A stretch of 36,339 nucleotides of DNA from Candidatus Neomarinimicrobiota bacterium. Lineage in GTDB: Bacteria > Fidelibacterota > SORT01. The stretch's first letter is position 1, and every line of letters starts with the position of its first letter. Under the pieces are notes generated by a model. The model was not told the origin of the DNA, ran no database searches, and saw only the letters and a list, made by a program, of their open reading frames with translations. Shown here in pieces: positions 652 to 15,388 of this stretch. Both the position numbers and the translations under genes were made by a program. The DNA lies in assembly GCA_022567655.1 (NCBI GenBank), contig JADFGO010000011.1, positions 1-36,339 on the forward strand, written 5' to 3'.

Positions 652-833
652 GAGGCTGTGTGAAAACATAGAAAAAAACGTCATTCCGAAGGAGTCCCGT
701 CCCGAAGTTTCGGGACGACTGAAGGAATCTCATAAGTACTTGTACTGCAGTTATTTATGAGATTGCTTCGTCCGCAAGCTGGCGGACTCGCAATGACGCT
801 TTTTACATTGTTATTGGGTTTGCACACAGACTC
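652..833. mobile_element. MITE-like non-coding element with terminal inverted repeats and nested hairpins
   Basis: The ends match as inverted repeats in 10 of 11 bases (GAGGCTGTGTG at 652-662 against CACACAGACTC at 823-833). Inside are nested inverted repeats: CGTCATTCCGAAGGAGTCC (679-697) against GGACTCGCAATGACG (784-798), CGTCCCGAA/TTCGGGACG around 698-717, TCTCATAA/TTATGAGA around 728-761 and GTCCGC/GCGGAC around 770-787. There is no transposase frame in its 182 bp. The end sequence resembles tips of IS5/IS1182-type elements as I remember them; that parentage is inference. A second tip-like sequence sits at 508-523. Confidence 0.6.
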
Positions 834-923: not shown

Positions 924-952
924 TTGACATACTGACACTGCTCGCTTATAAT
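924..952 (+). promoter_or_regulatory. Near-ideal sigma70 promoter of the cytochrome operon
   Basis: A perfect -35 TTGACA (924-929) and a perfect -10 TATAAT (947-952) are separated by exactly 17 bases. Transcription would begin near 959, about 50 bases before the first codon of the barrel-like protein. A full consensus match suggests strong, activator-independent expression of the operon downstream. Confidence 0.85.
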
Positions 953-1006
953 TACGCCCTAAGTGAAGTAGATTTTAATAGAAACTAATCAAAACGGAAA
1001 ACGCAG

Positions 1007-2413
1007 ATTTTTCACAGTGACTTCTATTATTCGGGGCGATTTTGGCGGCTCCACTATTTTACTCTCTTCTTTTTTATCCTGTTATTTCAGTCAGGGCTAA
1101 ACGCTCAATCATACGACGGCAGGTTCTCCTCTTCCGTCTATGCATGGTCGGAAAGTTACGATGGCACCAAAAGGGAACATTTACGAATCTATCAGTCATC
1201 AAGCATAACCCTGCGTGATTTTTTCAAAAAGGGATTAAAGCTCAAAAGCTATTTTTATCTCTCCGATGATCTGAATTCAAACGTTCCTGACAATACGTAT
1301 CTCAAATTATACGACATATACGCTGATTATTCCGGAGCGTTCTTCGATACGGATTTAAAAATCGGAAGACAATTTCTCTTCGCCGGAGTCGGCAGGGGAC
1401 CGATTGACGGATTAAAGCTAACTTACAGGGGTTCGGATAACGGGAAATTATTGCTCTATGCCGGGACATCAGCTCCCTTGACCGATTCGGAAAAGATCGA
1501 CAGCTGGAACGAGAGTCATATGTTCGGGGGCGAACTGACTCTCTATTACCTGTTTGGAAGCGTCGCAAAATTCAGCTACATGAGAAGATCGAAAAGCGTC
1601 GAGCCGTTCGAGCTGAACCCTCCCCGATTGGGAATCAGCAGTGTGAACCCTACCTCCCTGCAAAGGCAGGCTGTAGGGATAGACGTTACAAGGGAACTGA
1701 ACGACCGAATGTCACTATACCTGAGAGCGGATTTAAGTGTTGGAGACGGAGTCCCGGACGGAACTTTAGCTCTTGAAAGGAGCGAACTGATAGTTACCTA
1801 CAACCGTCCGAAATCTCATTACATAACCGCCGAATTTCTCAATCGCCGCCCGCTCATTTACATCAATTCGTTTTTCAGCAGGTTCAGCAAACTGCTTCGG
1901 CGGAGTAATGAACTCAGTCTTGCTTTGGATAAAAGAATCTCGGAAGAGTTCTGGTATAACGGCAAAATAGCAGTCGTCTATTACGGCGCTCCATCATATA
2001 GAGGCAGGAGCTCAAGGAGCCTGCGGTTCAACACCGGAATATCGCTGAACGGATTGACAGCGGGACTAACCGTCCGAAACGGGTACGGCGGCGATTGGTT
2101 CGGGGTTTATGGCGGTTATTACGGTAAGATAACGAAGACAATCAGCCTCAGACTTGACGGCGAGTGGTCTGCGTTTTCGTTGACTTCATTCGATCTTCTC
2201 GACGACAGCGACAAAAGCTCCGCATTCGGCGTCAGAACCGGAGGAAACTGGAAGATCAACCGGCATATTTCGGTGGACGCGGAAATTCAGACGCTCGCTC
2301 AATCGATAGAATGGGCGAATATAGCTGATTTTATTCCCTTTGCGGGAAATGACAGGGAATTACGCGCTTTCGCGAAAGTCAACTTCTGGATCTTCAAGGG
2401 GAAGGGTTACTGA
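1007..2413 (+). CDS. Outer-membrane beta-barrel-like protein, porin partner of the multiheme cytochrome
   Basis: The frame is open from 989 to 2413 and encodes about 468 residues. It begins with a signal peptide: a basic segment, a hydrophobic run (FTLFFFILLF), then a probable cleavage after GLNA. The rest has the alternating polar/aromatic pattern of outer-membrane strands (for example FGVYGGYYGKI, SLRLDGEWSAF) and ends with a short strand rich in aromatics (VNFWIFKGKGY). I recognise no named family. The gene is followed by one base and then the 12-heme cytochrome gene, and shares the promoter at 924-952, so a role as an outer-membrane sleeve for that cytochrome is likely, though smaller than MtrB/PioB. 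No in-frame ATG, GTG or TTG exists before 1451, which would remove the signal peptide. ATT at 1007 is the best remaining start, so the exact 5' end is uncertain. Confidence 0.65.
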   Translation: MFHSDFYYSGRFWRLHYFTLFFFILLFQSGLNAQSYDGRFSSSVYAWSESYDGTKREHLRIYQSSSITLRDFFKKGLKLKSYFYLSDDLNSNVPDNTYLKLYDIYADYSGAFFDTDLKIGRQFLFAGVGRGPIDGLKLTYRGSDNGKLLLYAGTSAPLTDSEKIDSWNESHMFGGELTLYYLFGSVAKFSYMRRSKSVEPFELNPPRLGISSVNPTSLQRQAVGIDVTRELNDRMSLYLRADLSVGDGVPDGTLALERSELIVTYNRPKSHYITAEFLNRRPLIYINSFFSRFSKLLRRSNELSLALDKRISEEFWYNGKIAVVYYGAPSYRGRSSRSLRFNTGISLNGLTAGLTVRNGYGGDWFGVYGGYYGKITKTISLRLDGEWSAFSLTSFDLLDDSDKSSAFGVRTGGNWKINRHISVDAEIQTLAQSIEWANIADFIPFAGNDRELRAFAKVNFWIFKGKGY

Positions 2414-2414
2414 G

Positions 2415-3410
2415 ATGTTCAAAAAATTCAGCCTCCTCCTTTATTCTTTATTGTTTATTCAGCTGAACAGCGTTAACGCCGGCGATGAAAAGATCAGACC
2501 GATCAAGCTCTCGCACAAAGTTCACATGGCTTTGGAAAATGTCGAATGTTCAACTTGTCACAAAGACACCGACATTTCGGTCAGATCTTCCGATATTATT
2601 TTACCTTCTAAGGAAGTATGCTCCTCATGCCATGACGTTGAATCTCCGGAGAAATGCAGTCAGTGTCATTTGACAACAGATGCAAAGGGATTCAGAGGAT
2701 TTATAACACCCGAACCTGAATTAAACTTCAACCACAAATACCACACTGTCACCCGGGGACTTCCCTGTTTCTTCTGCCACGGCGATATCGAAAATCAGGA
2801 TGTTATCAGCGAAGCAAATATGCCGCCTATGACCACATGCTTCAATTGCCATAACGATAAAATCGCCCCTACCGACTGCGGGTGGTGCCACCTGAACGAG
2901 GATAATTTAAGACCCGAATTTCATACTACCGACTGGCTGAGCAAGCACCGGGTCATATATAATTCGGGAAAGTTGAAAGCGGAGAATAATTGCGCTATGT
3001 GTCATCAGGATAACTGGTGTCAGGAATGCCACACCGGTTCCCAGCTGACGAAATCTTCTCCTCAGAGCGTTTCACCCTTTTACCAGCCGAGTGAACGGGG
3101 AAGGAAACCGCAGACCATATCGAGAGTGCATTCACTTAATTACCGCTTCCTCCATCCTATCGATGCCAAAGGCAGGGAACGTTTCTGCACTACCTGCCAT
3201 GAGTTTACGGAGTTTTGCGTTGAATGCCACAGGGAAGATGAAAACCGGTTCATGCCTAAATGGCATCAGGGTTCCGACTGGGCGCCCGGTTTCAGAGTCG
3301 GCGGAAGACATGCTGATTTCGCGCGGCGTGATCTCGAGCGCTGCATGGGCTGCCACGACCTTCAGGGGGAAGCTACGACATGTTTGAGATGCCATGTGGA
3401 TGAAAGATGA
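2415..3410 (+). CDS. Exported dodecaheme c-type cytochrome
   Basis: The product is a 331-residue periplasmic or outer-membrane electron carrier. A signal peptide (MFKKFSLLLYSLLF to about NA22) is followed by twelve CXXCH heme-binding motifs, with first cysteines at residues 45, 69, 81, 118, 142, 155, 193, 202, 258, 268, 310 and 323. Ten other histidines (34, 37, 107, 110, 170, 178, 239, 247, 284, 299) can serve as sixth ligands. The first two heme triplets are a duplication: each starts with HKxH and the next cysteines follow at +8, then +24, then +12 or +13. They resemble triheme c7 modules. Three heme pairs follow. Size and heme density recall MtrA/DmsE-type cytochromes. The ATG at 2415 is chosen because it begins the signal peptide, one base after the barrel gene ends. 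The downstream lipoprotein gene overlaps by four bases (ATGA). Confidence 0.9.
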   Translation: MFKKFSLLLYSLLFIQLNSVNAGDEKIRPIKLSHKVHMALENVECSTCHKDTDISVRSSDIILPSKEVCSSCHDVESPEKCSQCHLTTDAKGFRGFITPEPELNFNHKYHTVTRGLPCFFCHGDIENQDVISEANMPPMTTCFNCHNDKIAPTDCGWCHLNEDNLRPEFHTTDWLSKHRVIYNSGKLKAENNCAMCHQDNWCQECHTGSQLTKSSPQSVSPFYQPSERGRKPQTISRVHSLNYRFLHPIDAKGRERFCTTCHEFTEFCVECHREDENRFMPKWHQGSDWAPGFRVGGRHADFARRDLERCMGCHDLQGEATTCLRCHVDER

Positions 3411-3772
3411 GAAACCCTTATTTCTTAATTCTCGCTGTGTTCCTTATCGGATGTACCGATATCGCCGAAAACCCCACGGACGAGGCAAACTATCAGCCGA
3501 TCCCGCAGAATGTGCAGGAAATAATTCTGTTCAACTGTTCTTTTTGTCATCAACCGGAATCATTGGTCGTGTTTAAGGGACAAATGCCGTACTTCGCGAT
3601 TTCTTTTCCCGACACGATCATTCTTGACACGATTCAAATCTGGCGGGCGAAAGAAAGAATCGGAATCAGGGTAAAGGAAGGAACGATGCCGAGACTTTCG
3701 GATACATCTGACGTATTTTTCCCATTGCCCGATGACAAAAAAGATATAATTGTCAATTGGTCCGAAGGATAA
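3407..3772 (+). CDS. Monoheme c-type cytochrome lipoprotein
   Basis: A 121-residue exported lipoprotein. The lipobox LIGC places the lipidated cysteine at residue 16. One heme motif, CSFCH, lies at residues 44-48, and the following GTMP (Met94) is a good candidate for the axial methionine, as in small His/Met cytochromes c. The start codon overlaps the stop of the 12-heme cytochrome (ATGA), so the two are almost certainly translated together. Because its heme is probably His/Met ligated while the neighbour is probably bis-His, it could act as a higher-potential entry or exit point for electrons at the membrane surface; that is inference. Which membrane leaflet it occupies cannot be read from the sequence. 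Confidence 0.8.
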   Translation: MRNPYFLILAVFLIGCTDIAENPTDEANYQPIPQNVQEIILFNCSFCHQPESLVVFKGQMPYFAISFPDTIILDTIQIWRAKERIGIRVKEGTMPRLSDTSDVFFPLPDDKKDIIVNWSEG

Positions 3773-13852: not shown

Positions 13853-15388
13853 TTGAAATTTTATTCGCCTGAACCGGAAGTAAAAATCACAAGGGCGTTC
13901 AAGGAGCCCTACAAAAGTATTATCACCGCAGCGCGTACCTGCTATTCTCCTTCGGGGATAGTCGAAGATGACAGAGTGAAACATAATTACGAAGCTCTTG
14001 TATCCGACCTCTATCAGGCTGGACATCACACGACTTTTCAGCACGCGCAATTTCAATTTGCAATTTCAAACGTCTCCCGCCATGCGGTCTGGTCATTCCT
14101 TCATAGCCACCCGTTTTATAATTCGGAGCAGGTAAGCCAGCGATATGTAGCGGTCAATAAAAACAACTATTCGATCCCTCCGTTCAGTTCCCGCGGAAGA
14201 GTGATTTACGAATCGACGGTCAGGACACAAATGAACGCTTACGACAAACTTCGGAAATTGCTTGTCAAGCCGGCAGCCGAAGAATTTTACAGGCGTTTTC
14301 CGGGAAGAATAAAAGTCAGCGAGAAATATGAAAAGGAGATTGGTAAAAAAGCGCAGGAGATCGCACGCTACGTCCTTCCCGTCTCCACCTTCACTTACCT
14401 CTATCACACTGTCAGCGCTTTGACCGTGTTGCGCTATATGCGTATATGCCAGATTTATGACACTCCTTTTGAACAGAGAATCCTTGCACAAAAAATGGCG
14501 GACGCAATACTGGACATCGATCCCGACTATAAGATAGTGCTTGAGGAACCGCTTGATGCTGATGAGCTGCGCGGCTATCAGAGTTTGAACGGACGAAGTA
14601 ACGGTAAAGCGTCAGAATTTCGGAAAGAGTTTGATGATAGTTTAGAGGGCAGAACTTCCCTGCTGATCGATTACAAGCTGCGGAATCAAGAGAGCATAGC
14701 GGATGCCGTCAGAGAAGTACTCGGTCTTTCGAGGAATGATCTTGACGACGAATCGGCTATCAGACTCTCGATCGATCCATCCCGAAACAGAGTGTTCGGA
14801 GAGAAACTGAACCTCTCTACTCATGACAAACTGACCCGCGCGATGCACCATGCCAGCTATACGTTCAGGAAGAAGATCAGCCATACAGCCGATTCACAGG
14901 ACCAACGGCATAGAATGACTCCCGCTTCCCGTCCTGTTCTTATCGCTCACATGGATAATACTCCCGACTATATTACACCCGCCTTGATAAATCAAAGTAA
15001 ACCGGCAACTGATCTGTTCACTACTACGATGGAACAGACATGGGACTCCATCGCAAAACTGACAACTCTCGGTGAATCTTCCGAGTTTATCGCCTACGTT
15101 CTCCCAAATGCTGTGTCGATAAGGTTTACAGAGTCCTCCGATCTTCTGAATCTTCACCACAAACACGCCATGAGACTCTGTTACCTCGCCCAGGAAGAAA
15201 TATGGAAAGCATCGCTCGATGAAGCGCTGCAAATCACTGAAATTAACCCATTGATCGGTAAATTCCTTCTCCCCCCTTGCACTCTCAGACAAATCGCCGG
15301 TACCAAACCGTTCTGCCCCGAAGGAAAAAGATACTGCGGAGAACCTGTCTGGAATTATTCGCGTGAAGAATACACGCGGATAATATGA
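13853..15388 (+). CDS. Tandem-domain ThyX-like flavin-dependent thymidylate synthase homologue
   Basis: A 511-residue protein with two ThyX-like domains, about twice the length of ordinary ThyX (220-250). Domain 1 (about 1-240) has SRHAVWSFLHSHPFYN and SEQVSQRY. The usual RHR is replaced by His84-Ser85-His86, while Ser95 and Arg97 of the motif's second half remain. Domain 2 (about 300-511) has QRHRMTPASRP, so RHR is present at 352-354. Both domains have the LP-containing helix segment (ARYVLPVSTF, FIAYVLPNAV). The C terminus carries an unusual cluster with Cys476, Cys488 and Cys495. The start is TTG at 13853; the ATG at 13839 leads to an immediate stop. ThyX makes dTMP from dUMP using FAD and methylene-tetrahydrofolate. 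Whether this tandem form does so cannot be settled here, but I see no other thymidylate synthase in the window. Confidence 0.8.
   Translation: MKFYSPEPEVKITRAFKEPYKSIITAARTCYSPSGIVEDDRVKHNYEALVSDLYQAGHHTTFQHAQFQFAISNVSRHAVWSFLHSHPFYNSEQVSQRYVAVNKNNYSIPPFSSRGRVIYESTVRTQMNAYDKLRKLLVKPAAEEFYRRFPGRIKVSEKYEKEIGKKAQEIARYVLPVSTFTYLYHTVSALTVLRYMRICQIYDTPFEQRILAQKMADAILDIDPDYKIVLEEPLDADELRGYQSLNGRSNGKASEFRKEFDDSLEGRTSLLIDYKLRNQESIADAVREVLGLSRNDLDDESAIRLSIDPSRNRVFGEKLNLSTHDKLTRAMHHASYTFRKKISHTADSQDQRHRMTPASRPVLIAHMDNTPDYITPALINQSKPATDLFTTTMEQTWDSIAKLTTLGESSEFIAYVLPNAVSIRFTESSDLLNLHHKHAMRLCYLAQEEIWKASLDEALQITEINPLIGKFLLPPCTLRQIAGTKPFCPEGKRYCGEPVWNYSREEYTRII

What the first reader, a model, noticed from the sequence alone, without database searches (positions are those of the whole stretch)
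924..3772. Compact porin-like / 12-heme cytochrome / monoheme lipoprotein operon: candidate extracellular electron conduit
One strong promoter leads into three exported proteins with 1-bp spacing and a 4-bp overlap: a barrel-like protein of about 468 residues, a 331-residue cytochrome with 12 CXXCH motifs, and a lipoprotein with one CSFCH and a possible axial Met. Known porin-cytochrome conduits (MtrAB-C in Shewanella, Pcc of Geobacter) couple a barrel to a decaheme or dodecaheme cytochrome. Here the barrel is smaller than MtrB/PioB and the third member is a small monoheme lipoprotein, not a large surface cytochrome. No inner-membrane quinol dehydrogenase is nearby. This combination may be a distinct minimal conduit type.
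Basis: partly seen in the sequence, partly recalled or inferred. Interest (0 to 1): 0.75.

Follow-up and report, generated by a model that had tools for sequence, protein, structure and literature searches.

The report
Outer-membrane electron conduit with one-heme cap
Three adjacent genes in an uncultured bacterium (most likely Candidatus Neomarinimicrobiota) very probably build a protein wire that carries electrons through the outer membrane, a known kind of device, but in this phylum the usual large surface cytochrome is consistently replaced by a tiny one-heme lipoprotein.

Summary
A perfect, conserved sigma-70-type promoter (924-952) precedes a beta-barrel gene (open frame 989-2413), a 12-heme cytochrome (2415-3410) and a monoheme lipoprotein (3407-3772), with 1-bp and -4-bp junctions. 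One correction: the barrel has no ATG/GTG/TTG start before 1451; its 468 residues assume an ATT start. Interpretation: mostly right, with the family corrected. It is not Mtr-like (no PF11854 match). Barrel and cytochrome are homologous to Pcc conduits: the barrel profile finds Desulfuromonas barrels (E 2e-40 to 3e-35), one beside 10-heme and 13-heme-lipoprotein genes, and the gene order matches Ignavibacteria clusters. AlphaFold2 gives a confident wide barrel (about 24 strands). The monoheme lipoprotein is no accident: all 16 Neomarinimicrobiota loci with this barrel (14 genomes; one cut by a contig end, one split over two contigs) carry it directly after the cytochrome, whereas Ignavibacteria carry 6-28-heme lipoproteins there. 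Two-gene Pcc clusters without an outer cytochrome are already published, so 'minimal' is not new; a conserved His/Met-type monoheme partner is a new variant as far as I could find. Electron direction is unproven; quinol-oxidising complexes beside 14-heme paralogues favour outward flow. Nothing here shows assembly or function.

The parts
924..952 (+). sigma-70-type promoter, TTGACA-17-TATAAT
   Evidence: 12 of 12 consensus matches; both hexamers align in the two same-family genomes
1007..2413 (+). outer-membrane beta-barrel (Pcc-type porin homologue); open frame 989-2413; start codon uncertain (ATT 1007 assumed), first ATG/GTG/TTG only at 1451
   Evidence: AlphaFold2 barrel; homology to Pcc-type barrels
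1043..1105 (+). hydrophobic signal peptide of the barrel (...LNA|QSYDG), by eye
   Evidence: sequence; not predicted with a signal-peptide program
1850..1885 (+). conserved barrel motif P...NSFFSRF (NSIFSVF in most relatives), predicted as a short helix in a loop between strands
   Evidence: invariant P249, N254, F260 of the mature protein in 28 barrels; helix 256-263 in the model
2415..3410 (+). 12-heme c-type cytochrome, 331 aa, exported (by eye); c7-type repeats
   Evidence: 12 CXXCH and 10 other His, all ten invariant in 29 homologues; PF14522 Cytochrome_C7 E 7e-15
3407..3772 (+). monoheme lipoprotein, 121 aa
   Evidence: lipobox Cys16, CSFCH 44-48 (3536-3550), Met94 (3686-3688), invariant in 10 homologues; profile finds the same gene at every Neomarinimicrobiota barrel locus of this type

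Best explanation
The three genes encode a porin-cytochrome (Pcc-type) electron conduit across the outer membrane. A wide beta-barrel holds the 12-heme c7-type cytochrome, whose heme chain carries electrons between periplasm and cell surface. A small outer-membrane lipoprotein with one probably His/Met-ligated heme is the redox partner at the outer end, in the place where relatives have 6- to 28-heme lipoproteins. The most likely direction is outward, from menaquinol through periplasmic cytochromes to an extracellular acceptor. Shown here: gene order, homology, a predicted barrel, conserved heme and ligand residues, strict association of the third gene. Inferred: complex assembly, the cytochrome sitting inside the barrel, surface location of the lipoprotein, His/Met ligation, direction and substrate.
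For: Confident wide barrel (pLDDT 86.5, pTM 0.80; matches generic outer-membrane barrels, best the FimD usher, TM 0.54). Barrel profile detects Desulfuromonas barrels at E 2e-40 to 3e-35, one of them directly beside a 10-heme cytochrome and a 13-heme lipoprotein gene; hhalign 99.5% and E 5e-23; the window cytochrome matches that 10-heme one, E 1e-14. Gene order as in Ignavibacteria, 4-heme / barrel / 14-heme / multiheme lipoprotein, the order implied for Ignavibacterium album IALB_1840-1837 (PMC4245776). Triplet at all 16 Neomarinimicrobiota loci; pairwise distances of the three proteins correlate at r 0.95-0.97, including two paralogous triplets within one family. Rieske/cytochrome b and multiheme genes flank several 14-heme paralogues.
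Against: No experiment exists. AlphaFold2 of the cytochrome was poor (pLDDT 55.7) and no complex model could be made. The 12-heme locus itself has no neighbouring quinol dehydrogenase, and the window genome has no NapC match and no match to the tetraheme cytochrome found at the 14-heme loci. The lipoprotein could be on the periplasmic face. The high correlations of protein distances also reflect shared descent. The barrel's start codon is unresolved.
Confidence: 0.8

Rival explanations
1. Same conduit, but for electron uptake: the monoheme lipoprotein accepts electrons from an extracellular donor such as dissolved Fe(II) (compare the monoheme cytochrome-porin Cyc2) and the 12-heme chain passes them inward towards the aa3-type oxidase.
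For: The window genome has an aa3-type oxidase and no NapC or tetraheme homologue. Invariant Met94 suggests a high-potential heme (general knowledge). Qrc-like genes (menaquinone reductase in sulfate reducers) flank several 14-heme paralogues. Mtr-type conduits may run either way (PMC10734462).
Against: Rieske/cytochrome b quinol-oxidising complexes also flank paralogues; Ignavibacteria relatives carry large multiheme outer cytochromes typical of reduction; no carbon-fixation or iron-oxidation genes were looked for.
Confidence: 0.2
2. The monoheme lipoprotein sits on the periplasmic face of the outer membrane and feeds or drains the 12-heme cytochrome; the conduit has no outer cytochrome, like the two-gene Pcc clusters of Anaeromyxobacter and Kuenenia.
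For: Two-gene Pcc clusters with 12-14-heme cytochromes are published (PMC4245776); nothing here shows surface exposure.
Against: The gene takes the position of the outer multiheme lipoproteins of relatives; residue +2 after the lipid Cys is never Asp in the 10 proteins, which by the E. coli rule means outer membrane but not which leaflet.
Confidence: 0.2
3. Not a conduit: an outer-membrane porin co-transcribed with periplasmic electron-storage cytochromes.
For: No functional data; the cytochrome's best solved relative with the profile is the dodecaheme c7-type cytochrome 3ov0, which is not in a barrel.
Against: Conserved barrel-cytochrome order across Neomarinimicrobiota, Ignavibacteria, KSB1 and Calditrichota, and homology of both partners to Pcc clusters.
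Confidence: 0.08

Closest known systems
Pcc cluster of Ignavibacterium album (IALB_1840-1837) and Melioribacter/Ignavibacteria relatives
   Same: Barrel of about 420 aa, then a 14-heme periplasmic-type cytochrome, then a lipoprotein; homologous barrel and cytochrome. Sequences of the I. album genes themselves were not compared; the link is by gene order in close relatives.
   Different: The outer lipoprotein has 6-28 hemes there and 1 here; a tetraheme gene usually precedes the barrel there; the window cytochrome lacks the last two hemes.
Pcc (OmbB-OmaB-OmcB type) of Geobacter/Desulfuromonas
   Same: Barrel plus periplasmic multiheme plus outer lipoprotein; homology to Desulfuromonas barrels and to a neighbouring 10-heme cytochrome.
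   Different: Outer cytochrome there has about 12-13 hemes; sequence identity is low (about 20%).
Two-gene Pcc of Anaeromyxobacter and Candidatus Kuenenia
   Same: Porin plus 12-14-heme cytochrome of 338-344 aa (PMC4245776); Myxococcales barrels align with this barrel.
   Different: No lipoprotein partner.
Mtr/Mto/Pio (MtrAB-C, PioAB)
   Same: Works on the same principle, a barrel around a multiheme chain.
   Different: No PF11854 match; the cytochrome is c7-type, not the decaheme MtrA family; a smaller barrel.
Geobacter extABCD / extHIJKL
   Same: Variable outer redox lipoproteins on a conserved conduit (PMC6148476).
   Different: ExtC/D have 5 and 12 hemes; ExtH is rhodanese-like; no monoheme lipoprotein seen in the passages read.
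Cyc2
   Same: A single heme associated with an outer-membrane barrel (PMC10734462).
   Different: One fused protein without a multiheme chain; homology not tested.

Membership tests
Pcc-type porin-cytochrome conduit | outer-membrane integral barrel, smaller than MtrB, homologous to Pcc porins | tested here: met
   model; homology to Myxococcales and Desulfuromonas Pcc-type barrels
Pcc-type porin-cytochrome conduit | adjacent periplasmic multiheme c-type cytochrome (5-14 hemes) | tested here: met
   12 CXXCH; homology to the Desulfuromonas 10-heme cytochrome; export judged by eye only
Pcc-type porin-cytochrome conduit | outer-membrane redox lipoprotein (in most but not all clusters) | tested here: inconclusive
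   lipobox and CXXCH invariant, found at all 16 Neomarinimicrobiota loci; outer-membrane and surface location not testable here
Pcc-type porin-cytochrome conduit | direct sequence relation to Geobacter OmbB/OmaB | not tested
Pcc-type porin-cytochrome conduit | trans-outer-membrane electron transfer | not testable with these tools
   needs biochemistry
Mtr/Pio conduit | barrel matches MtrB_PioB (PF11854) | tested here: not met
   no match nor in five genomes
Mtr/Pio conduit | decaheme MtrA-family cytochrome (DmsE/MtrA, TIGR03508) | tested here: not met
   12 hemes; no TIGR03508 match at E up to 1; best solved relatives are c7-type
Cyc2 | cytochrome fused to the barrel | tested here: not met
   separate genes

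The most novel reading that the evidence does not exclude
A directionally biased conduit: the low-potential 12/14-heme chain ends in a dedicated high-potential His/Met monoheme lipoprotein that exchanges electrons with a dissolved partner, perhaps Fe(II) uptake coupled to an aa3-type oxidase, instead of a multiheme mineral reductase, conserved in a phylum not linked to extracellular electron transfer in the papers I could search.
Probability: 0.2. Interest if true: 0.7.

Novelty: new variant of a known kind. Interest (0 to 1): 0.45.

Why it matters
It extends Pcc-type conduits to Candidatus Neomarinimicrobiota, for which the papers searched gave no report of extracellular electron transfer. 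The conserved core with an outer lipoprotein ranging from 1 to 28 hemes is a natural series for asking what the outer cytochrome is for. The small monoheme version should be easier to express and measure than MtrC-like proteins.

Tried and rejected
MtrB/PioB membership: no match. Sequence search of the barrel against solved structures found nothing convincing; the structure search gave only generic barrels. AlphaFold2 of the cytochrome was too weak to use for a fold search. NapC/CymA in the window genome: none found. The Qrc-like Mo-enzyme query found only remote molybdoenzymes there (best 28% identity). Literature searches for Marinimicrobia or Neomarinimicrobiota with extracellular electron transfer found no report of such a conduit among the titles and abstracts listed; most subscription papers are not held. 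An apparent lack of the third gene at four 14-heme loci in my ORF maps was an ORF-calling gap: the profile search found it.

Full report
WHAT IS THERE. The window is contig C11 of a 2.14-Mb draft genome. A same-family genome, G002, carries the syntenic locus on a contig of 96,262 bases, the length of a record titled Candidatus Neomarinimicrobiota B25T3L8, so the organism is most likely a member of that phylum. A consensus promoter (924-952), aligned in two relatives, leads into a barrel gene, a 12-heme cytochrome and a monoheme lipoprotein with 1-bp and -4-bp junctions. In both same-family genomes with the locus the triplet lies in the same place, followed by an OPT transporter, a LonB-like protease and two oxidoreductase genes.

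START CODON. The barrel frame is open from 989 but has no ATG, GTG or TTG before 1451, inside the barrel. An in-frame ATT occurs at a similar place in G000, G002 and G001; G001 also has a GTG, and a paralogue in G002 has no plausible standard start but a CTG behind a purine-rich stretch. A real non-standard start and errors in draft genomes cannot be told apart here.

BARREL. AlphaFold2 with 28 homologues gives pLDDT 86.5 and pTM 0.80. DSSP lists 23 strands plus a short one; the alternation of long and short loops fits about 24 strands (my reading). Foldseek's hits are generic outer-membrane barrels, best the FimD usher, TM 0.54. MtrB_PioB is not matched. The profile finds three barrels in a Desulfuromonas genome, E 2e-40 to 3e-35; one lies directly beside a 10-heme cytochrome and a 13-heme lipoprotein (L139), and hhalign gives 99.5%, E 5e-23. 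Myxococcales barrels align too (E 1.8e-9).

CYTOCHROME. It has 12 CXXCH and only 10 other histidines, all ten invariant in 29 homologues, so at most ten hemes can be bis-His and two need another ligand or none. It is c7-type: PF14522, and its best solved relative with the profile is 3ov0. It matches the Desulfuromonas 10-heme cytochrome (E 1e-14). Most homologues have 14 hemes; the same-family 12-heme group lacks the last two, and the G001 copy has 11.

LIPOPROTEIN. 121 aa, lipobox Cys16, one CXXCH, Met94, and no other Cys; those residues are invariant in ten homologues. Single-sequence Pfam scans give only weak cytochrome c hits. In 245 genomes of the phylum its profile gives 16 strong matches, E 7e-24 to 2e-47, in 14 genomes, each next to a barrel/cytochrome locus of this type; the next match is at 8e-15 (loci). 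At G096 the barrel is cut by a contig end and at G234 the locus is split over two contigs. Pairwise distances of the three proteins correlate at r 0.95-0.97 over ten triplets, including two paralogous triplets inside one family; shared descent contributes to this.

RELATIVES. In a named collection the cytochrome profile found 42 loci. Most Ignavibacteria loci read 4-heme, barrel, 14-heme, lipoprotein with 6-28 hemes, the order implied for I. album IALB_1840-1837 (PMC4245776). Two-gene Pcc clusters and Pcc outer cytochromes with one typical motif plus atypical ones are already published there, so 'minimal' is not new. Geobacter clusters often exchange their outer lipoprotein (PMC6148476).

ELECTRON PARTNERS. 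Several 14-heme paralogues stand beside Rieske/cytochrome b genes with multiheme subunits, and some beside a complex resembling QrcABCD. The 12-heme locus has neither. The window genome has a Rieske/b complex with an 8-heme subunit and an aa3-type oxidase elsewhere (assigned from gene order and partial profile matches), no NapC match and no homologue of the tetraheme cytochrome. Outward flow is my preferred direction because Rieske/b complexes normally oxidise quinols; this is inference.

VERDICT. A Pcc-type conduit with a conserved monoheme lipoprotein partner: a new variant of a known kind. Assembly, surface exposure, heme ligation, direction and substrate are untested.

Noticed in passing
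window 989-1451: Barrel gene without ATG/GTG/TTG in its plausible start region; ATT at 1007 with in-frame counterparts in two relatives, and a CTG in a paralogue (L035). Possible non-standard starts or draft-genome errors.
   Followed up: partly
window 2415-3410: Twelve hemes but only ten non-motif histidines, all invariant in 29 homologues: two hemes lack a His partner.
   Followed up: partly
L118, L119, L120, L121, L123, L040: 14-heme paralogues beside a QrcABCD-like complex; several also beside Rieske/cytochrome b and 9-heme genes: an apparently coherent quinone-to-outer-membrane module.
   Followed up: partly
L049-L077 (Ignavibacteria loci): The same conduit core is followed by lipoproteins with 6 to 28 CXXCH, a large range for one gene position.
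   Followed up: partly
L041, L042, L043, L122: A second kind of cluster in the phylum: barrel of about 400 aa, 11-12-heme cytochrome, 5-7-heme lipoprotein.
   Followed up: no
window 655-805: Intergenic repeat; 21 matches in the genome, four of them over most of its length at 77-100% identity including itself.
   Followed up: partly
window 13853-15388: 511-aa protein with two Thy1 (ThyX) matches.
   Followed up: no
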